This document shows, piece after piece, positions 4,541 to 43,317 of a DNA stretch of 64,000 nt. The translations under genes were made by a program, and so were the position numbers. The notes under the pieces were generated by a model. That model saw only the letters and a list, made by a program, of their open reading frames with translations. It had not been told where the DNA came from and ran no database searches. This DNA is from Sphingomonas sp. LC-1 (GTDB lineage Bacteria > Pseudomonadota > Alphaproteobacteria > Sphingomonadales > Sphingomonadaceae), in NCBI RefSeq assembly GCF_025371035.1, contig NZ_JANZXB010000006.1, positions 62,001-126,000 on the forward strand, given 5' to 3'. Numbering within the stretch: the stretch's first letter is position 1; each line of letters starts with the position of its first letter.

Positions 4541-4578
4541 CGTCCGGGGGGCGGCGATCGGTTCGCCGCCCCCGCCCC

Positions 4579-8657: not shown

Positions 8658-8672
8658 TCGGGGAGGATGACG

Positions 8673-19818: not shown

Positions 19819-19856
19819 CCATCTTGCACAGCCGTCCAGAATCGGAGTTGATTTCC

Positions 19857-19889
19857 GGTGCCGAGGAGCCTTTTCCTCGGCACCAATTC
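19857..19889 (+). terminator. Hairpin between adhesin and secretion genes
   Basis: GGTGCCGAGGA, loop GCCTTT, then TCCTCGGCACC: a perfect 11-base stem 38 bases after the adhesin stop, followed by AATTCT. It is strong enough to terminate or attenuate transcription before the TolC-like gene, or to protect the 3' end of the adhesin message. Confidence 0.55.
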
Positions 19890-19978
19890 TCCATCTATTA
19901 AATATGTTAGCAGCAACCACTGAGACAGAAGCTAAGCATCGGTGGGCCAAGCAACCCGAATGACGGGAACGTTACCGA

Positions 19979-21262
19979 ATGCGATCAGGGAGGAGGATGA
20001 CGGCTATGCTAGCCTCGATCATCGCAACGGCGGCAAGTGCAGAGCCGGCCATCACCCTGCAAAGTGCCATGCACGAGGTGCTGCAATGGCATCCCGCCGT
20101 CACGCAGGCCGCCGCCACCGTGGAAGCGCGCGGCGAGGATGTGGAGGTCGCACGGGCGGGCTATCTACCCAGGATCAGCGCCGGGGTAGGCAGCGGCTAT
20201 GACAGCCGGCTGGGCAGCATCTGGCGTCCCCGCCCGCAGATTTCGGCCTCGCAGATGCTGTTCGACTTCGGCAAGGTCGCGGGCGCGGTCGATGCCGCGC
20301 GCGCCGGAACGCGGATCGGGCGGGCCGACATGCTGCTGGCGGTCGACGGGCTGATCCGCGACACGGGCTATGCGATGATCGAAGTTCAGCGCAACGCGGC
20401 GCTGCGCGGCATCGCGATCGAACAGCTATCGCGCATTCGCGAGATCAGCGATCTGGTCGACAAGCGGTTCGGCAAGGGCGCGACGACGCGCTCCGATGCG
20501 CTCCAGGCGCAATCGCGTGTCGCCGCCGCCGAGGCGACGCTGACCCGGATCGAGGCGGAGCAGCGGCGCTGGACCACCGGCCTGTCCTTCCTGCTCGGTC
20601 GCGATACGCCTCCCACGGTCGACCCCGACGTGCCCGACTGGCTGATGGGCAGTTGCACCCGTGCCGCGACGGTCGAATGGGCCGACGTCCCCGCCATCAT
20701 GCGCGCCCGTGCACAATATGAACAGGCGACGGCCGAGAGCCGGCGCGTCCACGCCGCGCGCCTGCCCACCGTCGCGCTGGCGGGGGATGCGGCGGCTGAT
20801 GTCAGTTCGCCCTTTTCGGACCGCAGCCTGTATAATTTCGGACTGAACGTCAGCAGCGACGTGTTCGGCGGCAATGCCGTTCGCGCCCGTGTGCGCAGCG
20901 CCGATCATGGCGTCCGCGCCGCCGAGGCCGCCGAACGCCAGGCCCGCAACGAAGTCGCATCGCAACTGGCCGAGGCGCAGCAGCAGATCGCCGGGCTGTC
21001 CCGGCTGCTCGACACGCTGGCCGCGCGGCAGGACAATATGGTGGAGACCGGCAAGCTCTATCGCCTGCAATATCTCGACATGGGCACACGCACCCTGGTC
21101 GACCTGCTCAATGCCGAGCAGGAGTTGCAACAGGCCCGGTTCGATGCCGTCAACACGGTCCACGATCTGCGGCGGCTGGCGATGGAATGCCTCTATGTCT
21201 CAGGCAAGGCGCGCGACGAGTTCGGGCTGACCGGCACCGCGATCCGGGGCGTCACGCTTTGA
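19979..21262 (+). CDS. TolC-family outer-membrane protein of type I secretion system
   Basis: Up to 427 residues. The start at 19979 gives a charged n-region (MRSGRR) and a good signal peptide ending ATAASA. ATGs at 19997 and 20006 lie closer to the AGGAGG at 19991-19996 and are alternatives. The body shows the paired coiled-coil helices of outer-membrane efflux proteins: ITLQSAMHEVLQWHP, QISASQMLFDFGKV and YRLQYLDMGTRTLVDLLNAEQELQQAR, with internal duplication. It should form the trimeric outer-membrane duct that works with the ABC transporter and HlyD-like protein directly downstream to export the adhesin. Its last base triplet overlaps the start of the ABC gene. Confidence 0.9.
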   Translation: MRSGRRMTAMLASIIATAASAEPAITLQSAMHEVLQWHPAVTQAAATVEARGEDVEVARAGYLPRISAGVGSGYDSRLGSIWRPRPQISASQMLFDFGKVAGAVDAARAGTRIGRADMLLAVDGLIRDTGYAMIEVQRNAALRGIAIEQLSRIREISDLVDKRFGKGATTRSDALQAQSRVAAAEATLTRIEAEQRRWTTGLSFLLGRDTPPTVDPDVPDWLMGSCTRAATVEWADVPAIMRARAQYEQATAESRRVHAARLPTVALAGDAAADVSSPFSDRSLYNFGLNVSSDVFGGNAVRARVRSADHGVRAAEAAERQARNEVASQLAEAQQQIAGLSRLLDTLAARQDNMVETGKLYRLQYLDMGTRTLVDLLNAEQELQQARFDAVNTVHDLRRLAMECLYVSGKARDEFGLTGTAIRGVTL

Positions 21263-23400
21263 CCGCCTCGGCCCTGCCCCCGACCGACTCGCTGGCCTGG
21301 ATCGACATGCTGGGACAGGTGGCGCGGCATTTCCGCATGCCCTTTGCCGAACAGCGCGCGCGGCTGACCGCCCTGTGGCAGGGCGGCGGCGACGAAGAGA
21401 CGCGGGTGCGGGCGATCGCGCGCGCCTCTGGCCTGTCGGTGCGCTTCGTCGCGCCGGCAGCGATGCGTTTGACCAGTTGGCGGCTGCCGGTCGTCGCGTG
21501 CCTGACCGATGGCGAACTCGCGCTCGTCACCGGGATCGATGCCGATGGGCAGGCGCTGTTCACCGTCGCGGGCGAAGACGGCCTCGCCGTGCAGCGCCCG
21601 CTGGCGATGCTGGTCGAGCAGACGCGGCTCTTCGTCGTCCCCCGTCCGGCGCGGTCGGCGGCGGATGTCCGCGTCGACAGCTATATCCGCCCCTTTGAGG
21701 AGCATTGGCTGCGCAGCCTGTTGTTGCAGGACGCGCGGAGCTATGGCCATGTCGCCGTCGCATCAGTGGTGACCAACTGCCTGGGGCTGGCGGGCGTGCT
21801 CTTCTCAATGCAGGTCTATGACCGGGTCGTGCCCGCCCAGTCGATGCCGACGCTCTATATCCTTTTCCTGGGCGTGCTGCTGGCGACCGGGTTCGACTTC
21901 GTGCTGCGGCGATTGCGGGTCGGGATCACCGACATTCTCGGCAAGCGCGCCGATCTACGGCTGTCGGACCGCGTCTTCGGCCATGCGCTGCGCGTCCGGA
22001 ACCGAGCTCGGCCGACCTCGACCGGCACCTTCATCGCGCAGCTTCGCGATCTGGACCAGGTGCGCGACATGCTGACCTCCACCACCGTCGCGGCGGTGGC
22101 GGACCTGCCCTTCTTCCTGCTGTTCCTCGTCATCCTCGCGTTCATCGGCGGCGTGCTGGCGCTGGTGCCGGTGGTGGCGCTGGTCGCGCTGTTGCTCCCC
22201 AGCCTGCTCGCCCAGCGGCGGCTGCGCGCCTATGCCACGGAATCGATGCGCGAAACCTCGCTGCGCAACGCCCTGCTGGTCGAGGCGGTGCAGGGGATCG
22301 AGGACATCAAGGCGCTCCAGGCCGAGGAGCGGTTCCAGCGCCAGTGGAACCATTGCAACGCGGTGGCGGGCGAGGCGCAGTTGCGGCTGCGCGGCCTGAC
22401 CGCCAGCCTGTCGACCTGGGCGCAGAGCGTTCAGAATGCGGTCTACGCCACCGTCATCTTCGTCGGCGCGCCGATGGTGATCGCCGGGGACATCACGACC
22501 GGCGCACTGGTCGCCACGTCGATGCTGGCCGGCCGGATGATGGCGCCGATGGGGCAGGTGTCGCACCTGCTCGGCCGCTATCAACATGCCAAGGTCGCGG
22601 CGAACAGCCTGGACCAGATCATGGCGCTGCCCGTCGACAATCCCGACGCCGAACACCGCATCCCCCTGCCCTCGGCACGCGGCGGCTTCACCTTGCGCAC
22701 CGCCGTCTTTTCCTATGCCGATCCGCAATCGCCCCCGGCGCTGACCGTCCCCCGGCTGGAGATCGCAGGGGGCGAGAAGGTCGCGGTGCTGGGCCGCAAC
22801 GGCGCGGGCAAGTCGACGCTGCTCCAGGGCCTGTCGGGCATGTTGCAGCCGGTGTCGGGCGAGGTGCTGCTCGACGATCTGGCGCTGCACCAGATCGATC
22901 CCGCCGATGTCCGGCGCGAGGTCGCCCTGCTGACTCAGAATAGCCGGTTGTTCCACGGGTCCTTGCGCGAAAACCTGACCATGGGCGCGCCGATGGCGAC
23001 CGACCAGGCGATCCTCGCTGCGCTGGAGATGGTCGGCGCGGTCGATTTCGTCCGCCGCCTGCGCGACGGGTTGGAGCATGTCGTGCTGGAAGGCGGGCTG
23101 GGCCTGTCGGGTGGGCAGCAACAGGCGCTGCTGCTCGCGCGGCTGCTGATCCGTCAGCCCCAGGTCATGCTGCTCGACGAGCCGACCGCGGCCATGGACG
23201 AAGCCTCCGAACGCCAGTTCATCGCGCGCTTCAAGGAATGGAGCCGCGACCGGACGGTGGTGGTCGCCACCCACCGGATGCGCGTGCTCGACTGGGTGGA
23301 CCGGGTGATCGTGATCGACAACGGCCTGATCCTGCTCGATCAGCCCAAGGCGCAGGCGCTCGCCACGCTTCAGGGTGCGGCACGGAGCCAGGCGGCATGA
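21259..23400 (+). CDS. Type I secretion ABC transporter (LapB/HlyB-like permease-ATPase)
   Basis: About 713 residues if started at the TTG at 21259, which overlaps the preceding stop (TTGA); an ATG at 21307 is an alternative. Domains: an N-terminal C39-like domain (about 1-130) without the catalytic cysteine, so it should bind rather than cleave the substrate; a six-helix membrane domain (about 160-440); and an ATPase domain with Walker A GRNGAGKST, signature LSGGQQQ, Walker B VMLLDEPTAAMDE and the H-loop ATH. It powers export of the adhesin through the TolC-like duct. The adaptor gene follows with an ATGA overlap. Confidence 0.92.
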   Translation: MTASALPPTDSLAWIDMLGQVARHFRMPFAEQRARLTALWQGGGDEETRVRAIARASGLSVRFVAPAAMRLTSWRLPVVACLTDGELALVTGIDADGQALFTVAGEDGLAVQRPLAMLVEQTRLFVVPRPARSAADVRVDSYIRPFEEHWLRSLLLQDARSYGHVAVASVVTNCLGLAGVLFSMQVYDRVVPAQSMPTLYILFLGVLLATGFDFVLRRLRVGITDILGKRADLRLSDRVFGHALRVRNRARPTSTGTFIAQLRDLDQVRDMLTSTTVAAVADLPFFLLFLVILAFIGGVLALVPVVALVALLLPSLLAQRRLRAYATESMRETSLRNALLVEAVQGIEDIKALQAEERFQRQWNHCNAVAGEAQLRLRGLTASLSTWAQSVQNAVYATVIFVGAPMVIAGDITTGALVATSMLAGRMMAPMGQVSHLLGRYQHAKVAANSLDQIMALPVDNPDAEHRIPLPSARGGFTLRTAVFSYADPQSPPALTVPRLEIAGGEKVAVLGRNGAGKSTLLQGLSGMLQPVSGEVLLDDLALHQIDPADVRREVALLTQNSRLFHGSLRENLTMGAPMATDQAILAALEMVGAVDFVRRLRDGLEHVVLEGGLGLSGGQQQALLLARLLIRQPQVMLLDEPTAAMDEASERQFIARFKEWSRDRTVVVATHRMRVLDWVDRVIVIDNGLILLDQPKAQALATLQGAARSQAA

Positions 23401-24584
23401 GCGCCGCGGCGGCCTTCGACGACCGGCCCTTCGCCGATGAAGGCGGGGCGCAATTGCTCGCCGCCCGGCGGATGCTGTGGGTGCTGACCGCGCTGTTCGT
23501 CGTCGCGCTGGTCTGGGCATGGTTCGCCGAACTGGACGAGGTCGCGACCGGCACCGGCCGGGTGGTGCCCACCAGCCGCGAACAGGTGCTGCAATCGCTG
23601 GAGGGTGGCATCCTGGCCAAGATGCTGGTGCGGCAGGACGACATCGTGAAACCGGGCCAGATCCTCGCGCAGCTCGACCCGACACAGGCGGGCTCGACGG
23701 TCGAGGAAAGCGCCGCCAAATACCGCGCCGCGCTCGCCGCCCAGGCGCGGTTGCAGGCCGAGGTCAACGGCACGCCCCTGTCCTTTCCGACCGAGCTGAA
23801 CGGCTTCCCCGCGCTCAAGGCCGAACAGCAACGCCTGTACGACGCCCGCCGCCGCAGCCTGGCCGGCTCGCTGGGGCTGATCGACGAATCCCTGACGCTG
23901 ATCGGGCGCGAGGTCGGGATCGGCGAGTCGCTGATCGAAGTCGGCGCGGCCAGCAATGTCGAGGTGTTGCGCCTGAAGCGACAGCGCGCCGACCTGGATC
24001 TGAAAAAGGCCGATCTGCGCTCGCAATATATCGTCGAGGCGCGGCAGGACCTGACCAAGGTCAGCGAAGAGGTGGAGGCGCTCGCCCCCGTGGTACGCGG
24101 GCGGTCGGACACGCTTAGCCGCCTGACCCTGCGCTCGCCGGTACGCGGGGTGGTCAAGAATATCGAGGTATCGACCATCGGTGGCGTCATTCCGCCAGGC
24201 GGCAAGATCATGGAGATCGTGCCGATGGACGAGCGCCTTCTGGTCGAGGCGCGCATCTCTCCGCGCGACATCGCCTTCATCCGCCCCGGCCAGCGCGCCA
24301 GCGTGAAGATCACCGCCTATGACTATGCGATTTTCGGCGGGCTGGAGGGCAAGGTCAGCAGCATCTCGCCCGACACGATCCGGGACGAGGTGAACCCGGA
24401 CGTCTATTATTACCGTGTCTTCGTGCGGACAACGGCGGACTCGCTGGTCAACAAGGCCGGGCGGCGCTTTCCCATCGTGCCGGGCATGATCGCCACCGCC
24501 GACATCCACACGGGCAGCAAGACCGTGCTGCAATATCTGCTCAAGCCGCTGAACCGCGCGCGCGAGGCGATGCGCGAGCGATGA
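23397..24584 (+). CDS. HlyD-family type I secretion periplasmic adaptor
   Basis: 395 residues; the ATG overlaps the stop of the ABC gene (ATGA), showing translational coupling. One inner-membrane helix (about 20-42, WVLTALFVVALVWAWF) is followed by TGTGRVVP and the lipoyl/barrel-sandwich half-motif EGGILAKMLVRQDDIVKPGQ. A long coiled-coil hairpin follows, then the second half (LRSPVRGVVKNI). A C-terminal barrel contains ISPRDIAFIRPGQ and ends VPGMIATADI. This order is that of LapC/HlyD adaptors bridging the ABC transporter and TolC. It completes a three-gene type I system for the 3313-residue adhesin. Confidence 0.92.
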   Translation: MSAAAAFDDRPFADEGGAQLLAARRMLWVLTALFVVALVWAWFAELDEVATGTGRVVPTSREQVLQSLEGGILAKMLVRQDDIVKPGQILAQLDPTQAGSTVEESAAKYRAALAAQARLQAEVNGTPLSFPTELNGFPALKAEQQRLYDARRRSLAGSLGLIDESLTLIGREVGIGESLIEVGAASNVEVLRLKRQRADLDLKKADLRSQYIVEARQDLTKVSEEVEALAPVVRGRSDTLSRLTLRSPVRGVVKNIEVSTIGGVIPPGGKIMEIVPMDERLLVEARISPRDIAFIRPGQRASVKITAYDYAIFGGLEGKVSSISPDTIRDEVNPDVYYYRVFVRTTADSLVNKAGRRFPIVPGMIATADIHTGSKTVLQYLLKPLNRAREAMRER

Positions 24585-33233: not shown

Positions 33234-34253
33234 CTAAACCCGCCCCACGGACTCCCGCAGCACCAGTTCGAAGTCCACCACCCGATCCTCGACCGTGCGC
33301 GAGCGTAGCGCCGTCAGCACCTGTTCGACCGCGCGGAACGCCATGTCGCCCACCGGCTGGCGGATCACGCTGAGCGGAGGCCAGACGCGGGCGGCGATCG
33401 CGGTGTCGTCGAACCCCGTCACCGTCAGATCGTCGGGCAGCCGCAGTCCCATGCGATGTGCCTCGCCGATCAGACCGGCGGCCATGTCGTCGCTGCTGCA
33501 CAGGATCGCGCTGGGCCGGTCGGCCAGCGACAACAGGGTCCGCCCCGCCTCCGCGCCCGCGGCAGGCTCGAACCCGCCCCGCACGACCAGCATAGGGTCC
33601 ACCGCCAGCCCGCTCGCCGCCATGCCGTCGTGAAATCCGGCCAGCCGCTCGTCCGCGACCGAAAAGCTTTGCGGTCCCGCCATGAAGCCGATGCGCCGAT
33701 GCCCCGCCTGAGCGACATGGGCCGTCATCGCCGCCATCGCCGCGCGGTTGTCGACGCGTACGGTCGAGATGTCGGGCAGCCCCTGCCCGGTCGCGATCGC
33801 CGCCGCCGCGACGCCCAGTTCCTCGAACAACCCCGACCCGCTGAGCAATTCGGCAAAGGGCGGGACCAGCAGCACGCCCGCCGCCCCGCTCTGCACCAGC
33901 GCACGCACCGCCGCCGCCGCCGCCTCGCGGGTCAGCCCCTCCTCCGCCTGCGCGATGAACTGCAACCCGCGCGCATTGCTCGCCCGCAGCGCACCAAGCA
34001 GGACCGAGTCGATGAAGGGCGTCCGCTTGTCGCTATAGAGCAGCCCCAGGGTGGTGGCCCGCGCCTTGGCCAGACGACGCGCGGCGATATTGGGGACATA
34101 GCCCAGCGCCTCGATCGCGGCGAGCACCGCCGCGCGCGTCGCAGGACTGGCCCGGCCGACGCCGTTGATGACGTTGGATACGGTCATCGCCGATACGCCC
34201 GCACGCTCGCCGACCGCGCGGATGGTGACGCCTTCGGGCCTTTTGCTGCTCAT
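33234..34253 (-). CDS. LacI-family transcriptional regulator
   Basis: 339 residues. The N-terminal helix-turn-helix is textbook LacI (VTIRAVGERAGVSAMTVSNVING, then the hinge GYVPNIAARRLA). The C-terminal periplasmic-binding-protein-like domain has TLGLLYSD, AILCSSDDMAAGLIGEAHRMG, DDLTVTGFDDTAIA and PLSVIRQPVGDMAFRAVEQ, indicating a sugar effector. It is the last gene of the putative 3-keto-glycoside operon and follows the GMC gene by 61 bases in the same direction. It probably represses this operon in the absence of the sugar signal; a LacI-like operator is present at 42059-42072. Confidence 0.92.
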   Translation of the reverse strand: MSSKRPEGVTIRAVGERAGVSAMTVSNVINGVGRASPATRAAVLAAIEALGYVPNIAARRLAKARATTLGLLYSDKRTPFIDSVLLGALRASNARGLQFIAQAEEGLTREAAAAAVRALVQSGAAGVLLVPPFAELLSGSGLFEELGVAAAAIATGQGLPDISTVRVDNRAAMAAMTAHVAQAGHRRIGFMAGPQSFSVADERLAGFHDGMAASGLAVDPMLVVRGGFEPAAGAEAGRTLLSLADRPSAILCSSDDMAAGLIGEAHRMGLRLPDDLTVTGFDDTAIAARVWPPLSVIRQPVGDMAFRAVEQVLTALRSRTVEDRVVDFELVLRESVGRV

Positions 34254-34314
34254 AGGGGATGATCCGCTAGCGCAGCCATCCCCCCTTGGCTATCGGCGAT
34301 CATCCGCCGTGCGA

Positions 34315-35997
34315 TCAGACCGCCCCCGCCTTCATCCCCTTGACCGCATGATCGGCCGCGCGCGCAGTCAGCGCCATGAAGGTCAGCGAGGGATTCACGC
34401 ACGATACGGACGTCATCTGCGCGCCATCGGTGACATAGAGGTTGGACGCGTCATGCGCCTGGCTCCATTTGTTGAGCACCGAATTGCGGGGGTCCGCCCC
34501 CATGCGCGCGCCACCCATTTCATGGATGGCGTCGCCGGGAACATGCTCCTGCTCGCCACTGGTGACGTTCCTTAGCCCCGCCGCACGCAGCATCGCTTCG
34601 CCTTCGCGCCGGGCGTCCGCCATCATCTTCAACTCATTGTCGCGGAAGGTCACGTCGAACTTCAGCAGCGGCACGCCGAAGCGATCAACCTTGCTCGGAT
34701 GAAGCGAGATGCGATTGTCCTCATAAGGCAGGCATTCGCCGAACGCGCCCATGCTGAACTGCCACGGGCCATAGCGTCGCATGCCATGCTTCATCTCCGC
34801 GCCGAAGCCGACCGGCTTGGCCGCGTTGCGATAGGCCGAGCCCTGATAGCCATAGCCGCGCTTGAAGCCGAGCCCCTCGTCCCCCTTGAGGTTGCGGAAG
34901 CGCGGCACATAGACCCCGCCCGGACGGCGACCATATTCGATCAGATCGTCCATGCCAGGAATTTCGCCCGACACGCCGACGCGGAAGATATGGTCCATGA
35001 CATAGCGGCCCAGCGTCCCGCTGCTGTCGAAATGGCTGCGCTCCGAGCCGGGCGCGCGCGAGTTCATCAGGATCTGCACCGACGCCATGGCCGAGGCGCA
35101 GACGAAGACGAGATTGGCGGCGACCGTCTGCGCCTGCCCCGTCTTCGCATCGACATAGCGGACGCCGGTGACCTTCTTGGCGGCAGGATCATAGTCGATC
35201 CCGGTCACCACCGCGTCCGATTGCAGCGTCAACCGCCCGGTCGCGCGCGCGGCGGGCAACGTCACGGCTTGCGTCGAGAAATAGGCGCCGAACGAGCATC
35301 CATTGCCGCACTGGTTGCGGAACTGGCATTTGGTGCGGTTCTGGTCGGGCTTGTCCTCGGTCATGTTGGACAGGCGGGTGTTGATCAGCTTGCGGCCCGG
35401 AAACTGACCCTCCAGCCGCTCCTTCAACCACTTCTCCGCGACGTTCATCGGGATCGGCGGCTGGAACTCGCTGTCGGGGAGATAGGGCAGGTTCTCGCGC
35501 GACCCCGATACGCCGATATATTTCTCGACATAGGAATACCACGGCGCGACGTCGTCATAGCGGATCGGCCAGTCAGCGGCGACGCCCTCGCGTTTGTTCG
35601 CCTCGAAATCGTCGGGGCTCCAGCGGAACGACCAGCGGCCCCAGATCAGCGACTTGCCGCCGACCGCGCCGGGGCGGATCCAGTAGAATTTGCTCCCCTC
35701 GTCATAGGCATAGGGGTTCAGCCGGTCGTCATTGTAGAATTTCTGGTTGCTGGGCGCGACATAGCCCTGTTTGGCGATGAAATAATCGCTCTCCACCAAG
35801 GGCTTGGGCATGATGTTGCGCGCGGGCACCTCGAAAGGCGGCTTGCCGTCATAGGGATAGCCCTCGCCATGCTCCACCATGACGCCCCGGTCGAGCATCA
35901 GGACGCGCAGGCCCTTTTCGGTCAGTTCCTTGGCGGCATAACCGCCACTGATGCCCGACCCGATCACGATCGCGTCAAAACGGTTCGTCGCCGCCAT
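34315..35997 (-). CDS. GMC-family FAD sugar dehydrogenase, catalytic subunit (glucoside 3-dehydrogenase-like)
   Basis: 560 residues from the ATG at 35997; AGGAGG directly abuts the other ATG at 36003, so 35997 has the better spacing. FAD-binding motif VIGSGISGGYAAKEL, then GAVGGKSLIWGRWSFRW. A three-cysteine cluster CQFRNQCGNGC (CX5CX3C) resembles the site that binds a 3Fe-4S cluster in bacterial FAD-glucose dehydrogenases. The C-terminal GMC motifs are HEMGGARMG and SVSCVNPSLTFMALTARAAD. It has no signal of its own, while the partner at 36857 carries a Tat signal, consistent with joint export. It would oxidise a sugar or glycoside, plausibly at C3, passing electrons to cytochrome c. Confidence 0.88.
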   Translation of the reverse strand: MAATNRFDAIVIGSGISGGYAAKELTEKGLRVLMLDRGVMVEHGEGYPYDGKPPFEVPARNIMPKPLVESDYFIAKQGYVAPSNQKFYNDDRLNPYAYDEGSKFYWIRPGAVGGKSLIWGRWSFRWSPDDFEANKREGVAADWPIRYDDVAPWYSYVEKYIGVSGSRENLPYLPDSEFQPPIPMNVAEKWLKERLEGQFPGRKLINTRLSNMTEDKPDQNRTKCQFRNQCGNGCSFGAYFSTQAVTLPAARATGRLTLQSDAVVTGIDYDPAAKKVTGVRYVDAKTGQAQTVAANLVFVCASAMASVQILMNSRAPGSERSHFDSSGTLGRYVMDHIFRVGVSGEIPGMDDLIEYGRRPGGVYVPRFRNLKGDEGLGFKRGYGYQGSAYRNAAKPVGFGAEMKHGMRRYGPWQFSMGAFGECLPYEDNRISLHPSKVDRFGVPLLKFDVTFRDNELKMMADARREGEAMLRAAGLRNVTSGEQEHVPGDAIHEMGGARMGADPRNSVLNKWSQAHDASNLYVTDGAQMTSVSCVNPSLTFMALTARAADHAVKGMKAGAV

Positions 35998-36026
35998 GGC
36001 CATCCTCCTAAATGTTTCTTATCGTT

Positions 36027-36860
36027 TTAGAATCGAAGCGCTTGCAGCGTCCGGAAACTGGTCGTGATGTCGGGCAGGTAAGGCGCGGGTGCCTGGTCGT
36101 TCTCGACATAGAAATGCTTCACGCCCGACAGGCCGTTGAGCTTGAAGATCGCAGCGAAGTCGATCTTGCCCGCCCCCACCGCGGTCATGCTGCCATCGGC
36201 GCGCGCATCCTTGACGTGATAGGCATAGATGCGCCCCGCCAGCCGCCGGATCAGCGCCGCCGCATCCTCGCCCGCATGGATCGCCCAGTACAGGTCGATC
36301 TCCAGCTTCACGAGCTTCGGATCGGTGCCCTTGAGCAGCCGGTCATACAGGCTGACGCCACCGGGCTTGTTGGTGAACTCGAAATCGTGATTGTGATAGG
36401 CGAAGCCCAGCCCCGCCTTCTTCAACTGCTCGGCGAAGCGGTTGATGTTGGGCAGCGCCGCATTCCAGCCCGCCTCGGTCCGATGCTCGTCGGTCATATA
36501 GGGCAGGATGACGGTGTCCGCGCCCAGCGTCTTCGCCATGGTCACGCATTTCCCGAAATTGCCGAGCAGCGCGTCATAGGGGACATGCACCGAGGGTGCC
36601 TTCAGCCCCAGCCGGTCCTGCGTGCGGCGGAGCATGGCATGGTCCATCGCGTCGTAACCGCCGCCGCCATATTCGATCTCGCGGTACCCGATCTTCGCCA
36701 CCGCCTCGAGCGTCTTGACCGGATCGGCCGCGAACAGCTCGCGGATCGTGTAGAGCTGTAGCCCGATGGCGCCCAGCCGCGCGGCCTGCGCCATCCCCGG
36801 CAGCAGCGCGCCCGCGCCCAGCCCCAGCCCAGCGCCCATCAGCGAACGACGATCGATCAT
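36027..36860 (-). CDS. TIM-barrel sugar isomerase/epimerase, Tat-exported
   Basis: 277 residues. The Tat signal is MIDRRSLMGAGLGLGAGALL. The mature part is a xylose-isomerase-like (AP endonuclease 2 fold) barrel: IGLQLYTIREL, IEYGGGGYDAM, FAYHNHDFEF with probable metal-binding histidine and glutamate, KLEIDLYWAIHAG, and YAYHVKDAR. The ATG overlaps the stop of the subunit-3 gene (ATGA). Export to the periplasm is unusual for this fold, which often acts on cytoplasmic sugars. Here it sits with an exported dehydrogenase and a DUF1080 enzyme, so it may isomerise or cleave the 3-keto product outside the cytoplasm. Confidence 0.85.
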   Translation of the reverse strand: MIDRRSLMGAGLGLGAGALLPGMAQAARLGAIGLQLYTIRELFAADPVKTLEAVAKIGYREIEYGGGGYDAMDHAMLRRTQDRLGLKAPSVHVPYDALLGNFGKCVTMAKTLGADTVILPYMTDEHRTEAGWNAALPNINRFAEQLKKAGLGFAYHNHDFEFTNKPGGVSLYDRLLKGTDPKLVKLEIDLYWAIHAGEDAAALIRRLAGRIYAYHVKDARADGSMTAVGAGKIDFAAIFKLNGLSGVKHFYVENDQAPAPYLPDITTSFRTLQALRF

Positions 36861-37447
36861 GCCGAATATACCTTGTTGACCTGAGAATAGGGGAAGGCAC
36901 CGTTATACTCGCCGGGCACGGGCAGATATTCGCGTTCCTGCGTGATGCCGATCTCCGACGTGTAATAGCCGGTGATGACCAGTTGCCGGAACGGCTCGAA
37001 GAAGGCGCGGCCCTCGGGCAGCACGCCCTCCATCGCTTCGGTCAGCAGCGTGTCCTGCTGCGCCGCCGTCGCCTTGGCGGCGGGCACGCGGTGGACACTC
37101 TGGCTGCGCGCCTCGATCGCGTTCAGCCCGGCGATGATCGGCACCCGGTCGGCAGGCAGCGACCAGTCGGCCAGCATCTTCTCGATGAATTCGGGCACCC
37201 CGGCCGCGATCGCGCCGGGCGTATCGGTGGTCGGCAGCACGCGTTCGGCCAACGCGGTCATCGTCGCGCGCTGGACGGGGGTGAAGACCGCCACGCTGGG
37301 CGGGCCGTTCGAGATGACGGGAATAGCGCCGCGCGTCTGCTCGACCGCGCCCGCCGCACGGGCGATGGGCGCGAACAGCGCGGAGCCGAACATGGCGGTG
37401 ATCCCCGCCAGGGCATGTCTGCGGTCGATATGGGGGTGGGCGATCAT
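36857..37447 (-). CDS. Gluconate 2-dehydrogenase subunit 3-like protein, Tat signal (dehydrogenase small subunit)
   Basis: 196 residues. Tat signal HIDRRHALAGITAMFGSALF, then the family pattern FTPVQRATMTALAERVLPTTDTPGAIAAGVPEFIEKMLADW. Proteins of this family form the small subunit of GMC sugar dehydrogenases and carry the folded catalytic subunit through the Tat pore (hitch-hiker export). The matching catalytic subunit is encoded at 34315-35997, two genes downstream. The gene overlaps both neighbours by ATGA, showing tight co-translation with the DUF1080 gene and the TIM barrel. Confidence 0.88.
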   Translation of the reverse strand: MIAHPHIDRRHALAGITAMFGSALFAPIARAAGAVEQTRGAIPVISNGPPSVAVFTPVQRATMTALAERVLPTTDTPGAIAAGVPEFIEKMLADWSLPADRVPIIAGLNAIEARSQSVHRVPAAKATAAQQDTLLTEAMEGVLPEGRAFFEPFRQLVITGYYTSEIGITQEREYLPVPGEYNGAFPYSQVNKVYSA

Positions 37448-38259
37448 CGGGCATCCTCCGGCAGGTCCTGCGCGATCGCCTCGGGCGGCAGCGGGCGGAC
37501 CCAGATGTTGCGGAACGAGACGGGCGAGTCGTGATCCTGAAGCTGGATCGGCGCGGCATCGCCATGCGCCTGGTATTTTTCGACCTGCCGCCAGACGGTG
37601 GTGCCCAGCATCGCCTGATGGTTCTGGACGACGACGCCGTTCAGCAGCGCGGTGACATAGGCGGGGCGGGTCAGCTTGCCATCGGCGGCAAAGCGTGGCC
37701 GCTCGAAGATGATGTCATAGCTTTGCCACTCGCCGGGCTTGCGCGCGGCGTTCACCAGCGGCGGCTTCCAGGCATAGACCGCCCCCACCTGCCCATCGGC
37801 ATAGGTCGGATTATTATAGCCGTCGAGGATCTGGACCTCATAGCGTTGCATGAACCAGATGCCGCTATTGCCGCGATCCTGCGAACTCTTCTGTGGCGGG
37901 TTGGGCGAGCGGAATTCGAGGTGCAGCTGGACATCGCCGAAGCTCTGCTTGCTGACCAGCACGCTCTCCGCCTTGCCGTCGCGCGGCGGCACGGTCAGCA
38001 CCCCGCCCTGAAGCAACCAGGGCTTGCCGCTGGCCGTCCAGGCGTCCAGCGAGCGCCCGTCGAACAGCACCACCGCATCCGACGGCGCACCGCCGGGCTG
38101 CGCGGCGGGCGTCACGACGCGCGGCGCGGGCCGGTCCGGATCATGGACATGCCATTGGCCGCCGGGCAGCATCGGCGTGTCGCGAAACCCCAGGCCCGGC
38201 TTGTCCTGGGCCGCCGCGCCGCTCGCCACGGCCAGCGCGATCAACGATAGCATCCGCAT
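37444..38259 (-). CDS. DUF1080 (3-keto-disaccharide hydrolase family) secreted protein
   Basis: 271 residues from the ATG at 38259, which has AGGAGG upstream; the ATG at 38274 is too early. A Sec-type signal (MRMLSLIALAVASGAAAQ) precedes about 50 residues containing GFRDTPMLPGGQWHVHDP. Then comes the jelly-roll of DUF1080/PF06439: VVLFDGRSLDAWT, SFGDVQLHLEFRSP, RGNSGIWFMQRYEVQILDG, EWQSYDIIFERPRF, YVTALLNGVVVQNH and IQLQDHDSPVSFRNIWVRPL. Members of this family cleave 3-keto-disaccharides. With the adjoining C3-type dehydrogenase genes this is the likely bond-breaking enzyme in the periplasm. Confidence 0.88.
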   Translation of the reverse strand: MRMLSLIALAVASGAAAQDKPGLGFRDTPMLPGGQWHVHDPDRPAPRVVTPAAQPGGAPSDAVVLFDGRSLDAWTASGKPWLLQGGVLTVPPRDGKAESVLVSKQSFGDVQLHLEFRSPNPPQKSSQDRGNSGIWFMQRYEVQILDGYNNPTYADGQVGAVYAWKPPLVNAARKPGEWQSYDIIFERPRFAADGKLTRPAYVTALLNGVVVQNHQAMLGTTVWRQVEKYQAHGDAAPIQLQDHDSPVSFRNIWVRPLPPEAIAQDLPEDAR

Positions 38260-38270
38260 CGCTCCCCTCC

Positions 38271-39191
38271 TCATGCTGTAGGATCGATCGCGCGGTAGGC
38301 GGCGATCAGTCTCTCTTCGCCCGCGCGGCCCTTGACCGAATTGCCATGTTCCATGCCGATCACCCCGGCATAGCCCTGTGCCTTCAAGAAGCGGCAGATA
38401 TTGGCATAGTTGATCTCGCCGCTGCCCGGCTCGTTGCGGCCGGGATTGTCGCCGAACTGGATATAGCCGATCTCGTCCCAGCAGAGTTTCATGGTCGGGA
38501 TCAGATTCCCCGACTGGATCTGCTCGTGATACAGGTCGGCCAGCACCTTCACGCCCGGACTGTTCGCCCCGCGCGCCACCGCATAGCCCTCTGCGATCGA
38601 CTGCATGAAGACGCCGGGATGGTTGGTCCGGGTGTTGAGCGGCTCCATCACCAGCGCCATTCCGTGCGGCGCGACGATCTCGCCCGCGCGGCGCATCACG
38701 TCGATGATCCGGCCCATCTGGATCGCAGGGTGAAGACGCTTGTCCATGAAGCCGGTGACCACGGTCATCCGCGTCGCGCCGACCCGCTTGGCGACATCGA
38801 CCGCGCTGGTCACATCGGCCAGGAAAGCCTGTCGCTCGGCATCGTCGTCACCGCCCAGCAGCGGCCGGGACTCGGACCATTTGGGCATGGACGCGACGAA
38901 CACGCCCATCGTCATTTTCCGGTCGCGCAGCGCCTTGGCGATCGCTTCCTGTTCGGCCACCGGGCGAAGGCGATATTCATTGTCCTCCCACGCCCAGAAA
39001 CCCTGATCGGCGGCATAGGCGATCTGCTCGACCGAGCTGTCACCCCGGCTGGCGAAGCTGCCCAGATGCGGCGCGAAGCCCAGGGTGAAACGCGCGGCGT
39101 TGGAGGATTTGCCCGCCTTCTGCGCCGCCAGCGCGGCAACCGGCGCAGCGGCGGCAATCCCACCGAGGATGGTGCGTCGCGACCAGCTCAT
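38271..39191 (-). CDS. TIM-barrel hydroxypyruvate-isomerase-like protein, Tat-exported
   Basis: 306 residues. Tat signal MSWSRRTILGGIAAAAPVAA. Xylose-isomerase-like barrel: RFTLGFAPHLGSF, ATRMTVVTGFMD, MALVMEPLNTRTNHPG (metal-ligand glutamate), VKVLADLYHEQI, GYIQFGDNPGRNEPGSGEI and GVIGMEHGNS. The FGDNPGRNEPGSGEINY pattern is typical of hydroxypyruvate isomerase-like proteins. It overlaps the MFS transporter stop by 4 bases and is followed after 11 bases by the DUF1080 gene. As a second exported isomerase in the same operon it probably handles another 3-keto intermediate. Confidence 0.86.
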   Translation of the reverse strand: MSWSRRTILGGIAAAAPVAALAAQKAGKSSNAARFTLGFAPHLGSFASRGDSSVEQIAYAADQGFWAWEDNEYRLRPVAEQEAIAKALRDRKMTMGVFVASMPKWSESRPLLGGDDDAERQAFLADVTSAVDVAKRVGATRMTVVTGFMDKRLHPAIQMGRIIDVMRRAGEIVAPHGMALVMEPLNTRTNHPGVFMQSIAEGYAVARGANSPGVKVLADLYHEQIQSGNLIPTMKLCWDEIGYIQFGDNPGRNEPGSGEINYANICRFLKAQGYAGVIGMEHGNSVKGRAGEERLIAAYRAIDPTA

Positions 39192-40492
39192 GCGACGGTC
39201 TCCATGACCCGGCCGCGAGGACGACGACGCTCGGCCAGCCAGATGCCACCGAAGACGAACAACAAGATCACCGGCACCAGCGCCAGCCGTGCAAAGGACT
39301 GCGACGCCGCCGCATCCTCGACCTGGCGCAGCGCTTCGCCGGTCAACCGCTTGAAGGCTTCCGGTCCACCGGCGAGTTCAACCTTGGCAGCATCGAACAT
39401 CGCGCCGAGACGCGGCAGGACGAAGAAGCTCGCCAGCGCGCCCGCCGATCCGACCAATCCCAATGCCCAGGCCCCGCCGCGGGGATACCGCTCCGCAACC
39501 GACGCCAGCATGGTCGGCCACATCGCGCAGACGCCCAGCCCCCAGACGGTCGAGGCCAGGATCGCCGCCACCGGCGACTGCGCCCGCGACAACAGGAACA
39601 GGCCGATCCCCGCCATCAGGCTGGACACCCAGAGCAGCCCCGGATTGGACAGCCGCCCGGCGATCCGCCCGGCGAAATGGCGGAACACGAACATCAGCGC
39701 GCTGACATAGACGAGCAGCAGGATGCCGCGCATCCCGACGCGACTGCTCAGCGCCACGTCGAGCCACTGGCCCGGCGCCAGTTCGGACGCGGCGGTCAGG
39801 AACATCGCGCCGAACCAGACGAAGAAGCTGGGCCGCTTGAAGACTTCCGCGATCATCCCGCCGAAGCCGACATCGCGCACTTCGCGTGGGACCGGCGGGA
39901 AATGCGTGGTCGCTGCCATCATCAGCACGCCCAGCGCGGGAATCAGCACCAGCGCCATGATCGTCTGCCAGGACAGGACTTCGGCGAGGAGCACGCCCGC
40001 TAGTCCACCGACGATCAGCCCGCCGGGATACCAGGCGTGCAGCACGTTCAGCCGATGCGTCGTCTCGTCTGGATAGAGCCGCGCGGTCAGCGGGTTGATC
40101 GAGGCCTCCGCCAGTCCCCAGCCGATCCCGCTGAGCAGCATCCCGCCCCAGACGATGTGATAGACCGCCATGCCGCTGGCGACCTGTCCCGCCCCAATGA
40201 TCGCCGTGGTGCCGACCAGAAAGCATAGTCCGCACCCGATCAGCATCCGCCGCGCGCCGATCCGGTCGAGCAGCGCGCTCGCCACGAACAGCGTCGCGGC
40301 GAAGCCCAGAAAGGCCGATCCCAGGGCCGATCCGATCAACTCCCCCGCCTCGACCGGTGCGATAGGATCGATCCACTGCGCCTTCAGGCTGCTCGCCACC
40401 GCCGCGCGCAAGGCCGCACTCGCGGCGGCCGTAAATAGGGCCAGCACGCTCAGCCAGAATAGTCGCGACCGATTGTCCGGTACCGCTTCCAT
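39188..40492 (-). CDS. MFS transporter, probable sugar importer
   Basis: 434 residues with about 12 hydrophobic segments. Major facilitator features: SALLDRIGARRMLIGCGL at the loop 2-3 signature, IGWGLAEASINPLTARLYPDE, HAWYPGGLIVGG and the second-half repeat FVFRHFAGRIAGRLSNPGLLW. The FxHAWYPxG pattern recalls the fucose/glucose permease type. It starts an ATGA-coupled series with the exported isomerase and DUF1080. It should carry the released (keto-)sugar across the inner membrane by proton symport. A 9-base inverted repeat lies in its leader at 40521-40551. Confidence 0.87.
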   Translation of the reverse strand: MEAVPDNRSRLFWLSVLALFTAAASAALRAAVASSLKAQWIDPIAPVEAGELIGSALGSAFLGFAATLFVASALLDRIGARRMLIGCGLCFLVGTTAIIGAGQVASGMAVYHIVWGGMLLSGIGWGLAEASINPLTARLYPDETTHRLNVLHAWYPGGLIVGGLAGVLLAEVLSWQTIMALVLIPALGVLMMAATTHFPPVPREVRDVGFGGMIAEVFKRPSFFVWFGAMFLTAASELAPGQWLDVALSSRVGMRGILLLVYVSALMFVFRHFAGRIAGRLSNPGLLWVSSLMAGIGLFLLSRAQSPVAAILASTVWGLGVCAMWPTMLASVAERYPRGGAWALGLVGSAGALASFFVLPRLGAMFDAAKVELAGGPEAFKRLTGEALRQVEDAAASQSFARLALVPVILLFVFGGIWLAERRRPRGRVMETVA

Positions 40493-40520
40493 GCCCCTCT
40501 CCCGCTTATGCTTTTTGTCA

Positions 40521-40551
40521 GACTTGACCTTCCGGGGCGGACGGTCAAGTC
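40521..40551. promoter_or_regulatory. 9-base perfect inverted repeat upstream of MFS gene
   Basis: GACTTGACC, 13-base spacer, GGTCAAGTC, 29 bases upstream of the transporter ATG, inside the 69-base gap that divides the operon. There is no T-run on the minus strand, so an operator or attenuating stem is likelier than a simple terminator. Confidence 0.45.
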
Positions 40552-40561
40552 ATTGAATCGC

Positions 40562-41605
40562 TTAAATTCCCAGCCATCGCTTATTGGCGTCGGGATCGCC
40601 TCCACCGGCGAAATCGTCAAAGGCGCGCTCGGCGCGTCGAATCATATGCGCGGCGATAAAGGGCGCCCCTTCGCGCGCGCCATCCTCCGGGTGCTTCAGG
40701 CAGCATTCCCACTCCAGCACCGCCCAACCGGCATAGCCATATTGGGTCAGCTTCGAGAAGATCCCGCCGAAATCGACCTGCCCGTCGCCCAGCGAGCGGA
40801 ACCGCCCCGGCCGGTCGATCCAATCGCTGTAACTGCCATAGACGCCCGCCCGTCCGGTCGGGTTGAACTCGGCATCCTTGACGTGGAACATGCGGATGCG
40901 GTCGTGATAAAAGTCGATGAATTGCAGATAATCCATCGCCTGCAGCACGAAATGGCTAGGGTCGTAGAGGATGTTGGCGCGGGCATGGCCACCGACCGAA
41001 TCCAGGAAACGTTCGAAGGTCGTGCCGTCGTGCAGATCCTCGCCGGGATGGAGTTCGTAGCAGAGGTCGACGCCCTCCTCCTCGAACGCATCCAGGATCG
41101 GCCGCCAGCGCTTGCCGAGTTCGGCAAAGCCCTCCGCCACCAGTCCGGCGGGACGCTGCGGCCAGGGATAGACGAACGGCCAGAGCAGCGCGCCCGAAAA
41201 GGTCGCGTGCGCCTTCAACCCCAGCCGGCGACTGGCCTTGGCGGCATAACGGAGCTGCTCGACCGCCCAAGCCTGTCGCTCGGCGGGTTTGCCCCGCACC
41301 GCCTCGGGCGCGAAGCCGTCGAAGGCGGCGTCATAGGCCGGGTGGACCGCGACCAACTGCCCCTGCAAATGGGTCGACAATTCGGTGATCGCGACCCCGG
41401 CATCGGCACAGCGACCGGCCAGATCGTCGCAATAATCCTGGCTTTCGGCGGCCGTCTTCAGGTCGATGCAGCGGGCGTCCCAGGTCGGAATCTGCACGCC
41501 TTCATAACCCGCCTCCGCCATCCAGCGCGCCGCCGAGTCGAGCGTGTCGAACGGTGCGGCATCGCCCATGAACTGCGCCAGGAAAATGCCCGGACCGCGC
41601 ATCAT
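40562..41605 (-). CDS. TIM-barrel sugar isomerase/epimerase, cytoplasmic
   Basis: 347 residues from the ATG at 41605; a GTG at 41626 overlapping the cytochrome stop (GTGA) is an alternative start. It has no signal peptide, unlike the other two isomerases of the locus. Barrel motifs: FLAQFMGDAAPFDTL, GYEGVQIPTWD, AGVAITELSTHLQGQL, VDLCYELHPGEDLHDG (metal-ligand glutamate and histidine), ANILYDPSHFVLQ, RMFHVKDAEFNPTGR and GWAVLEWECCL. Closely related proteins act with Gfo/Idh/MocA oxidoreductases on keto-inositols and 3-keto sugars. The divergent partner at 42127 fits that pairing. Confidence 0.87.
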   Translation of the reverse strand: MMRGPGIFLAQFMGDAAPFDTLDSAARWMAEAGYEGVQIPTWDARCIDLKTAAESQDYCDDLAGRCADAGVAITELSTHLQGQLVAVHPAYDAAFDGFAPEAVRGKPAERQAWAVEQLRYAAKASRRLGLKAHATFSGALLWPFVYPWPQRPAGLVAEGFAELGKRWRPILDAFEEEGVDLCYELHPGEDLHDGTTFERFLDSVGGHARANILYDPSHFVLQAMDYLQFIDFYHDRIRMFHVKDAEFNPTGRAGVYGSYSDWIDRPGRFRSLGDGQVDFGGIFSKLTQYGYAGWAVLEWECCLKHPEDGAREGAPFIAAHMIRRAERAFDDFAGGGDPDANKRWLGI

Positions 41606-41622
41606 CGGGGCGGTCCCGGCGC

Positions 41623-42009
41623 TCACTTGGCGGTCTCGGTCTTGAGATAGGCGATCAGCGCGGCGCGCTTGGCGGGATCCGCGACGCCGATCGGCATCCG
41701 CGTGCCGGGCACCTTCTTCATCGGCGCGGCGATGAAGTCGTTCAATGTCTTGTCGTCCCACTTCAGCCCCGAGGCTTTCATCGCGGGGGAGTAGTTGAAG
41801 CCCGCCACCGTGCCCGCCTGCCGTCCGAACACGCCGTTGAGATTCGGCCCGACGCCGTTGCGCCCGCCCTTGTTGAGCGTATGGCAGGCGCGGCAGGCGG
41901 CAAAGGCCTGCGCCCCGGCGGGGGCGGACTGGGCCGTCGATGGCGCGTTGGCGGCGATGACCAAAGCCACGGCACAGGGCAACGCGGCCAGCCAGATCAG
42001 CTGCCTCAT
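41623..42009 (-). CDS. Small class I cytochrome c, periplasmic
   Basis: 128 residues. A signal peptide (MRQLIWLAALPCAVALVIAAN to APSTAQ) precedes a single haem-binding motif CRACH at about residue 38. Then come KGGRNGVGPNLNGVFGRQAG and FNYSPAMKASG, with the probable axial methionine in GTRMPIG. The pattern is that of soluble cytochrome c2-like proteins. It is the first gene of the 3-keto-glycoside operon, so it is the likely electron acceptor for the GMC dehydrogenase, passing electrons to a terminal oxidase. Confidence 0.92.
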   Translation of the reverse strand: MRQLIWLAALPCAVALVIAANAPSTAQSAPAGAQAFAACRACHTLNKGGRNGVGPNLNGVFGRQAGTVAGFNYSPAMKASGLKWDDKTLNDFIAAPMKKVPGTRMPIGVADPAKRAALIAYLKTETAK

Positions 42010-42058
42010 TCACTCTCTCCTGTCATTTTCTTTCCCAGACTCACTGGTTCATGCTGGA

Positions 42059-42072
42059 GTTTAACGGTAAAC
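42059..42072. promoter_or_regulatory. LacI-type operator candidate in the divergent promoter
   Basis: GTTTAA-CG-GTAAAC: a near-perfect palindrome centred on CG, the usual shape of LacI/GalR-family operators (TTTA-CG-TAAA core). It lies in the 117 bases between the cytochrome c gene and the Gfo/Idh/MocA gene, where one bound repressor could control both directions. The LacI gene of the locus is the obvious candidate. Confidence 0.55.
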
Positions 42073-42126
42073 CGATGCGGTGCAAGCACCGAATGTCGCC
42101 CGATGAGCGACAGGATAGAGGAGAGG

Positions 42127-43317
42127 ATGATGGCAGGACGCAAGCTGAAACTGGCGATGGCGGGCGGTGGCGAGGGCGCGTTCATCGGCGGCGTACACCG
42201 GATGGCGGCCGCGCTGGACGGCGACTGGCAACTGGTCGCGGGCACGTTCAGCAGCGATGCCGAGCGGAACCGGCGGAGCGGCGAGCAGCTTGGCCTAGCC
42301 CCCGACCGCGTCCATGCCTCGATCGAGGCGCTCCTCGCCGACGAGCGGATGCGTCCCGAGGCGGAACGGATCGACGCGGTCGCGATCGTCACCCCCAATC
42401 ATCTCCATGCCCCCATGGCGATCGCCGCGCTGAACGCCGGGTTCCCGGTGTTCAGCGAGAAACCGATGGCGATGAATCTCGCCGAAGCGCGCGCCATCGC
42501 CGACGCCGCACGCGCCTCGGGCCAGCTCTATGCCCTGGCCTTCACCTATAGCGGCTATCCGATGGTCGAGGAGGCGCGGGCCCGCGTCGCGCGCGGCGAT
42601 TTCGGCCGCATCCGCCTGGTCCATGTTGAATATGTCCAGGGCTGGCTCAGCAGCCCGCTCGACCGCGAGGGCAACAAGCAGGCCGAATGGCGCACCGACC
42701 CTGCGCGTGCCGGACTGGGCGGCGCGCTGGGCGATATCGGCACCCATGCCTTCCAACTGGCCGAGCATGTCGCAGGTCTGAAGGTCGAGGCGCTGTCCGC
42801 CGACGTGACGACCCATGTCGCGGGGCGGATGCTCGACGACGATGTGAACGTCCTCCTGCGCTTTGCCGAAGGCGCGCGGGGCACGCTACGGGCGACTCAG
42901 GTGGCGGCGGGCGAGGAGAACGGCCTGCGCCTGCGCATCCATGGCGAGAAGGGCGGGCTGGAATGGTCACAGATGGAGCCCAATACGCTCATCCTGCGCT
43001 GGCTGGACCGACCCGCCGAAACCGTACGGGCGGGCGGCCCCGGCCTCGCCCCCACCACCCTGCCGCGGCTGCGCACCCCCTCGGGCCATCCGGAGGGCTA
43101 TATCGAAGCGTTCGGCAATCTTTATCGCGCGGTGGCGGATACGCTCCGCGATGGCGGACCGGCCGAGGGCGGCGCGCTAGGCGAGGCGACCTGGTTCCCC
43201 GGATTGGAGCCGGGATTGCGGACCATGGCCTTTGTCGAGGCGGTGCTGGCGAGCGCCGGATCGGCGGAGAAATGGACGGTCTTTCCCAAGGTCGATAAGC
43301 CTGCGCCTCAGGATTGA
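42127..43317 (+). CDS. Gfo/Idh/MocA-family NAD(P)-dependent oxidoreductase
   Basis: About 396 residues; ATGs at 42127 and 42130 both follow GAGGAG and either may be used. Rossmann motif MAGGGEGAFIGGVH, then VTPNHLHAPMA and the family catalytic EKPMAMNLAEAR. The C-terminal substrate domain has GGALGDIGTHAFQLAEHVAG with the conserved aspartate and histidine. No signal peptide, so cytoplasmic. Members reduce keto-sugars or oxidise sugar hydroxyls. Opposite the 3-keto-glycoside operon, the natural role would be reduction of imported 3-keto-glucose to glucose. Confidence 0.9.
   Translation: MMAGRKLKLAMAGGGEGAFIGGVHRMAAALDGDWQLVAGTFSSDAERNRRSGEQLGLAPDRVHASIEALLADERMRPEAERIDAVAIVTPNHLHAPMAIAALNAGFPVFSEKPMAMNLAEARAIADAARASGQLYALAFTYSGYPMVEEARARVARGDFGRIRLVHVEYVQGWLSSPLDREGNKQAEWRTDPARAGLGGALGDIGTHAFQLAEHVAGLKVEALSADVTTHVAGRMLDDDVNVLLRFAEGARGTLRATQVAAGEENGLRLRIHGEKGGLEWSQMEPNTLILRWLDRPAETVRAGGPGLAPTTLPRLRTPSGHPEGYIEAFGNLYRAVADTLRDGGPAEGGALGEATWFPGLEPGLRTMAFVEAVLASAGSAEKWTVFPKVDKPAPQD

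What the first reader, a model, noticed from the sequence alone, without database searches (positions are those of the whole stretch)
33234..43317. Probable complete 3-keto-glycoside pathway: oxidative opening of glycosidic bonds
One co-directional set plus a divergent gene encodes a cytochrome c, GMC dehydrogenase with its Tat-borne small subunit, a DUF1080 (3-keto-disaccharide hydrolase family) protein, three TIM-barrel isomerases, an MFS carrier, a LacI regulator and a Gfo/Idh/MocA oxidoreductase. Known families: glucoside 3-dehydrogenases oxidise C3 of glycosides, DUF1080 enzymes cleave the 3-keto product, and Gfo/Idh/MocA enzymes interconvert 3-keto-glucose and glucose. The inferred flow is periplasmic oxidation and cleavage, import, then cytoplasmic reduction, bypassing ordinary glycosidases. 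This exact gene combination with three isomerases may be undescribed.
Basis: partly seen in the sequence, partly recalled or inferred. Interest (0 to 1): 0.78.

Follow-up and report, generated by a model that had tools for sequence, protein, structure and literature searches.

The report
Sphingomonad pathway splitting glycosides by oxidation
This ten-gene cluster most likely lets a Sphingomonas-like bacterium cut sugars off other molecules by first oxidising carbon 3 of the sugar instead of hydrolysing the bond; the route is already known in outline, but one exported enzyme in it has no known job.

Summary
In detail: all ten genes lie at 33234-43317, five of them overlapping by 4 bases in turn. 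The 3-keto-glycoside reading is well supported by inference but needs correcting. The three 'isomerases' are three different enzymes. TimA (36027-36860, Tat-type start) resembles the beta-eliminase AtOGE and keeps its metal ligands and catalytic base in 42 of 42 sequences. TimC (40562-41605, no signal seen) matches a solved 2-hydroxy-3-keto-glucal hydratase at 604.8 bits. TimB (38271-39191, Tat-type start) is a hydroxypyruvate-isomerase/ketose-epimerase-like protein of unknown reaction. Likely flow: oxidation and elimination in the periplasm, import, then hydration and reduction in the cytoplasm. The module is neither unique nor new in kind: its core is in 33 of 36 related loci fetched; the three TIM types recur with GMC, small subunit, PF06439 and Gfo in Xanthomonas, Palleronia and Hymenobacter; Caulobacter lactose and Agrobacterium phlorizin systems are described. 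Added here: a putative LacI operator found in 20 of 20 loci with the regulator and 0 of 7 without, and TimB as a candidate 3-keto-sugar epimerase. Substrate and chemistry are untested.

The parts
33234..34253 (-). LacI-family regulator, last gene of the minus-strand set, likely repressor
   Evidence: Pfam LacI and Peripla_BP_3; its presence next to gmc goes with the operator
34315..36003 (-). GMC flavoprotein, catalytic subunit of the inferred glycoside 3-dehydrogenase; no signal peptide of its own seen
   Evidence: Pfam GMC_oxred_N/C; nearest solved sequences are fructose and glucose dehydrogenase large subunits
36027..36860 (-). TimA: exported (Tat-type start) AtOGE-like 3-keto-glycoside beta-eliminase (inferred)
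   Evidence: best PDB sequence match 8bvk (AtOGE), 98.4 bits; H156, H158, D189, H215, E253 invariant in 42 of 42
36857..37447 (-). Tat-type small subunit of the dehydrogenase (PF13618)
   Evidence: Pfam 116.8 bits; RR motif and hydrophobic stretch
37444..38274 (-). PF06439 (DUF1080) 3-keto-glycoside hydrolase family protein, Sec-type signal
   Evidence: Pfam 138.5 bits; best solved match 4qhz
38271..39191 (-). TimB: exported (Tat-type start), hydroxypyruvate-isomerase/ketose-epimerase-like; candidate 3-keto-sugar epimerase or isomerase
39188..40492 (-). MFS carrier, inferred importer of the keto-sugar or keto-glucal
   Evidence: Pfam MFS_1; a Nuc_H_symport carrier stands near the cluster in L042 and L070
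40562..41605 (-). TimC: cytoplasmic 2-hydroxy-3-keto-glucal hydratase (inferred)
   Evidence: 604.8 bits, residues 2-347, to 8ro4, named 2-hydroxy-3-keto-glucal hydratase; no signal seen
41623..42009 (-). Exported cytochrome c, inferred electron acceptor of the dehydrogenase; first gene of the minus-strand set
   Evidence: Pfam Cytochrom_C; hydrophobic signal
42059..42072 (.). Putative LacI operator GTTTAACGGTAAAC in the divergent promoter region
   Evidence: only match with up to 3 mismatches in the window; conserved in place in 20 of 20 loci with the regulator, 0 of 7 without
42127..43317 (+). Gfo/Idh/MocA oxidoreductase, inferred cytoplasmic 3-keto-glucose reductase, divergent
   Evidence: Pfam GFO_IDH_MocA domains; a relative lies near TimC in 19 of 20 class loci

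Best explanation
A LacI-controlled divergon encodes an oxidative deglycosylation pathway split over two compartments. In the periplasm the GMC protein, carried out with its Tat small subunit and linked to the exported cytochrome c, oxidises C3 of a glycoside (inferred). The exported TimA then removes the aglycone or second sugar by metal-dependent beta-elimination, leaving 2-hydroxy-3-keto-glucal (inferred from AtOGE and its conserved residues), while the PF06439 protein cleaves other 3-keto glycosides to the 3-keto sugar (inferred from Caulobacter genetics). The MFS carrier imports the glucal or 3-keto sugar (inferred). In the cytoplasm TimC adds water to give 3-keto-glucose and the Gfo/Idh/MocA enzyme reduces it to glucose (inferred from 8ro4, AtHYD, LgdB2 and LgdC). 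TimB is an exported metal-dependent epimerase or isomerase acting on a 3-keto intermediate (inferred). Shown here: gene content, export-type starts, catalytic residues, conserved neighbourhoods, conserved operator-like site. Not shown: any reaction, substrate or expression.
For: TimC to 8ro4 604.8 bits; TimA to 8bvk 98.4 bits with the AtOGE metal ligands and base conserved in 42 of 42, 8bvk being AtOGE; PF06439, PF13618 and GMC domains. Starts: TimA, TimB, small subunit, PF06439 and cytochrome look exported; GMC, TimC and Gfo do not (a crude check). A Gfo relative lies near TimC in 19 of 20 class loci. The seven core genes occur in 33 of 36 same-genus loci chosen by GMC and in 22 of 23 named alphaproteobacterial loci chosen by TimB. 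The three TIM types with GMC, small subunit, PF06439 and Gfo occur in Hymenobacter, Xanthomonas and Palleronia. Literature: Caulobacter, GlycDH/AtOGE/AtHYD/Gfo operon, LgdA/B1/B2/C.
Against: No assay. The GMC's nearest solved relatives are fructose and glucose dehydrogenases, which do not oxidise C3 (the oxidation sites are recalled). The Gfo protein falls far below the cut-offs of the levoglucosan dehydrogenase and BT_2158 families, so its 3-keto activity rests on position. PF06439 is absent from 9 of 36 loci, but those genomes hold 3-6 PF06439 matches elsewhere, so its share of the cleavage cannot be read from the loss. In the other phylum and class the cytochrome is not alike: the Hymenobacter and Xanthomonas ones score 1.6 and 11.6 bits with the sphingomonad profile, and none is annotated in the Palleronia cluster. 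Most of the more distant TimB relatives show no cluster genes. TimB's reaction is unknown. The Caulobacter and Agrobacterium protein sequences were not fetched for direct comparison.
Confidence: 0.77

Rival explanations
1. The PF06439 protein is the main cleaving enzyme, hydrolysing 3-keto disaccharides in the periplasm as proposed for Caulobacter, and TimA is a side enzyme for beta-glucosides with good leaving groups.
For: [quoted passage not shown] crescentus; PF06439 domain at 138.5 bits; all 9 genomes whose cluster lacks it have other PF06439 matches.
Against: TimA is in 36 of 36 same-genus loci and PF06439 in 27, three of these divergent copies; TimC, the enzyme that consumes the elimination product, is found in 34 of 36 (one a fragment).
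Confidence: 0.3
2. The GMC complex oxidises C1, C2 or C5 of free sugars (a fructose, glucose or gluconate dehydrogenase), and the rest handles free keto-sugars.
For: PDB sequence neighbours are fructose and glucose dehydrogenase large subunits; the small subunit is of the gluconate 2-dehydrogenase subunit 3 family.
Against: It travels with an AtOGE-like eliminase, a 3-keto-glucal hydratase relative and a 3-keto-disaccharide hydrolase family protein; a GlycDH with a Tat-signal partner protein from Rhizobium sp. GIN611 is the enzyme used to make 3-keto glycosides in PMC10628242.
Confidence: 0.08
3. TimB is an ordinary hydroxypyruvate or 2-oxo-tetronate isomerase that happens to be in the operon.
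For: Closest in sequence and structure to 3ngf and 1k77; NCBIfam OH-pyruv-isom is its best family.
Against: It scores 125.5 bits against a cut-off of 353.45; it has a Tat-type start; it is in 36 of 36 loci and near PF06439, GMC and small subunit in Catenovulum.
Confidence: 0.25

Closest known systems
Caulobacter crescentus lactose cluster (LacABC, DUF1080, transporter, two epimerases, reductase)
   Different: Two DUF1080 proteins and two epimerases reported there, one and three here; sequences not compared here because the Caulobacter genome was not reached
Agrobacterium tumefaciens GlycDH-AtOGE-AtHYD-Gfo operon
   Same: Oxidation, elimination, hydration, reduction; TimA and TimC are homologues of the eliminase and of a glucal hydratase; that 8ro4 is AtHYD is recalled
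   Different: Window cluster adds PF06439, TimB, cytochrome c, MFS and the LacI operator
Bacillus smithii levoglucosan pathway LgdA/B1/B2/C
   Same: Same four-step logic (PMC7676230 passages)
   Different: First step there is an NAD-dependent dehydrogenase, here a GMC flavoprotein with cytochrome; the window Gfo is well below the levoglucosan dehydrogenase cut-off
E. coli YcjR, 3-keto-D-glucoside 4-epimerase
   Different: Only 16% identity; TimB has Q245 where the B-slot proteins of Hymenobacter, Xanthomonas and Palleronia have His; that ketose epimerases use an E-D-H-E metal set is recalled

Membership tests
AtOGE-type 3-keto-O-glycoside beta-eliminase (TimA) | Metal ligands His132, Asp163, His189, Glu233 and catalytic base His134 | tested here: met
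   Aligned residues H156, D189, H215, E253, H158 present in 42 of 42 TimA sequences
AtOGE-type 3-keto-O-glycoside beta-eliminase (TimA) | Releases aglycone and 2-hydroxy-3-keto-glucal from 3-keto-phlorizin | not testable with these tools
   needs purified protein
2-hydroxy-3-keto-glucal hydratase (TimC) | Full-length close similarity to a named hydratase | tested here: met
   604.8 bits, residues 2-347 to 8ro4 4-349
2-hydroxy-3-keto-glucal hydratase (TimC) | Hydration activity | not testable with these tools
   needs assay
PF06439 3-keto-disaccharide hydrolase | Domain score over the Pfam cut-off | tested here: met
   138.5 against 26.8 bits
LacABC / GlycDH type membrane-bound glycoside 3-dehydrogenase | GMC subunit, PF13618 Tat-type small subunit and cytochrome c encoded together | tested here: met
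LacABC / GlycDH type membrane-bound glycoside 3-dehydrogenase | Sequence clade with LacA or Rhizobium GlycDH | not tested
   those sequences were not fetched
LacABC / GlycDH type membrane-bound glycoside 3-dehydrogenase | C3 regioselectivity | not testable with these tools
   needs product analysis
BT_2158 glycoside 3-dehydrogenase or levoglucosan dehydrogenase (Gfo protein) | NCBIfam equivalog score | tested here: not met
   29.5 against 750 and 122.7 against 650 bits
Hydroxypyruvate isomerase (TimB) | NCBIfam equivalog score | tested here: not met
   125.5 against 353.45 bits
3-keto-glucoside 4-epimerase YcjR (TimB) | Closest structural relative | tested here: inconclusive

The most novel reading that the evidence does not exclude
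TimB is an exported metal-dependent epimerase of 3-keto sugars (C4 or C2) that turns galacto- or manno-configured 3-keto intermediates into gluco-configured ones, so that one eliminase, one hydratase and one reductase can serve many glycosides. It would answer the stated question of the fate of 3-ketogalactose in this kind of pathway. In the Xanthomonas, Palleronia and Hymenobacter clusters a related but distinct protein with a Tat-type start and His in place of Q245 fills the same slot.
Probability: 0.3. Interest if true: 0.6.

Novelty: new variant of a known kind. Interest (0 to 1): 0.42.

Why it matters
Oxidation-elimination routes open glycosidic bonds by another chemistry than ordinary glycosidases and have been described from several bacteria. 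Here the steps can be given a place: elimination outside, hydration and reduction inside, with a conserved operator-like site that makes induction testable by reporter. If TimB is a 3-keto-sugar epimerase, it explains how one pathway could handle lactose and other non-gluco sugars, which the Caulobacter work left open. At least one carrier was isolated from a plant (Chinese cabbage) and has the cluster on a plasmid, so it may bear on plant glucoside use.

Tried and rejected
Rejected: that PF06439 is dispensable because 9 of 36 loci lack it; all 9 genomes have matches elsewhere, 3-6 places each, some of them two in one gene and a few below the cut-off. Rejected: that the combination is unique to this genome. 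In Asticcacaulis AC402 TimB (65%) follows an alpha-galactosidase instead. The operator motif was first read in the window, so its presence there is no evidence; with 3 mismatches 0.83 sites are expected by chance in 64 kb; the evidence is its conservation in place.

Led nowhere: Caulobacter and Agrobacterium sequences were not reached; a second structure job (TimA) had not finished at the last poll and is not used. Paper searches: (0 papers; 3 papers, none with Sphingomonas) listed nothing on this cluster in sphingomonads; one search is inconclusive (8 of 2,103 papers listed). They cover this open-access library only. The Nature 2024 paper on an alternative glycan-breakdown pathway is recalled, not held; Arellano 2010 is not held.

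Full report
Observation. The ten genes are present as described. Nine run on the minus strand from cytochrome c (42009) to LacI (33234); the Gfo/Idh/MocA gene diverges. TimA, small subunit, PF06439, TimB and MFS overlap by 4 bases in turn.

Compartments. By N-terminal sequence (a simple hydropathy and RR check, no trained predictor) the small subunit, TimA and TimB look Tat-exported, PF06439 and cytochrome c Sec-exported, and GMC, TimC and Gfo have no signal. The check is crude: TimA's hydropathy peak is 1.55 against 1.33 for GMC, so its export rests mainly on the RR start, and the Xanthomonas Gfo start scores 2.12 and meets the RR pattern, which I take for its Rossmann start. In the Hymenobacter, Xanthomonas and Palleronia clusters the TimA-type, TimB-slot and PF06439 proteins have export-type starts and the TimC proteins do not.

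Conservation. A GMC search of 120 relatives matched 61. I fetched 36 same-genus loci with GMC of 79% identity or more; one more such place (G007) was not fetched. By sphingomonad profiles GMC, TimA, small subunit and TimB are in 36 of 36; TimC (in L072 a fragment) and cytochrome in 34; Gfo in 33; PF06439 in 27, three of them (L058, L070, L074) divergent; this MFS type in 15; all seven core genes in 33 of 36, the misses being L049, L061 and L072. These counts are conditional on choosing loci by GMC, and the profiles were built from the same loci. A Nuc_H_symport carrier stands near the cluster in L042 and L070. A scan with TimB gave 80 named loci: 22 of the 23 alphaproteobacterial ones (L125-L147) hold the core, 16 of the 23 have PF06439 and 13 this MFS. 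A second GMC group (72-76%) in 11 loci, L075-L085, stands with TimA (2) or the small subunit (9) only, apart from weak TimB and TimC hits in L084. In the class sample TimC relatives (E to 1e-80) are in 25 of 289 genomes, PF06439 relatives (1e-30) in 3 and TimB relatives (1e-30) in 5, the own genome included each time. Of 20 TimC loci fetched from 20 of those 25 genomes, 19 have a Gfo relative nearby; the other, L218, is a 10 kb contig.

Named clusters. The same gene order is on a 385 kb plasmid of Sphingomonas parapaucimobilis YK209, with TimA, TimB, TimC and GMC at 90-97% identity. Hymenobacter volaticus, Xanthomonas sacchari and Palleronia sp. each hold GMC, small subunit, PF06439, Gfo, a transporter (two permeases, one ABC type) and one or more of each TIM type. 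A tree puts the TIM proteins in three groups, with the B slot filled there by a sister group (the tool flags long branches, so the joins between groups are unsure). Their cytochromes are unlike the window's (1.6 and 11.6 bits) or not annotated. Catenovulum has TimB, PF06439, GMC and small subunit.

Regulation. A 14-base site, GTTTAACGGTAAAC, lies between cytochrome c and Gfo. Among 28 loci with the divergent arrangement and this MFS, all 20 with LacI beside gmc have it (2 mismatches or fewer) in that interval; of 8 without, 7 lack it, and the eighth (L041) ends at its contig end right after gmc, so its LacI cannot be seen. In random intervals of the same length from the same loci, at most 4 of 200 reach the same match in the 20 loci, some of which may overlap the site itself. 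The consensus is GTTTANCGNTAAAC.

Link to a second system. The same contig carries, about 46 kb before the window, a GMC and small subunit next to a C-glycoside deglycosidase beta subunit (PF19906), a TIM barrel, GH3 and a TonB receptor. TimC has one match in the genome at 1e-80, so the window's hydratase and reductase may serve both; this is inference.

Literature. PMC9007349 section 10 was read in full: in C. crescentus lacABC are required for lactose use, a DUF1080 protein, a transporter, two epimerases and a reductase are important for it, and the fate of 3-ketogalactose is called unknown. PMC7676230 passages give the four-enzyme levoglucosan route.

Verdict. A real, conserved, complete-looking oxidative deglycosylation cluster; a sphingomonad variant of a known kind. 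The open item is TimB.

Noticed in passing
own genome contig C45:13490-17413 (L037:8491-12414), outside the window: A second GMC/small-subunit pair beside a PF19906 C-glycoside deglycosidase beta subunit and a TIM barrel, with GH3 and a TonB receptor nearby: a likely C-glycoside 3-keto system on the same contig.
   Followed up: partly
window 3029-9647: Melibiase_2 alpha-galactosidase, TonB receptor and GH43 in one stretch: a likely plant-polysaccharide locus.
   Followed up: no
window 9877-24581: A 3313-residue BapA-like adhesin with 30 Big_6 stretches followed by type I secretion genes (OEP, ABC, HlyD).
   Followed up: no
L141:357-3462: In Asticcacaulis sp. AC402 a TimB of 65% identity directly follows a Melibiase_2 alpha-galactosidase, a hint at galactose-configured substrates.
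   Followed up: partly
L121 (NZ_CP155753.1 217421-246332): In Sphingomonas parapaucimobilis the whole cluster with neighbouring genes lies on a 385 kb plasmid, so the window's contig may be a secondary replicon.
   Followed up: no
L209:2292-3706 and 18469-19689: Croceicoccus marinus has two TIM barrel plus DUF6379 pairs flanking a GMC/TimC/Gfo cluster with GH3.
   Followed up: no
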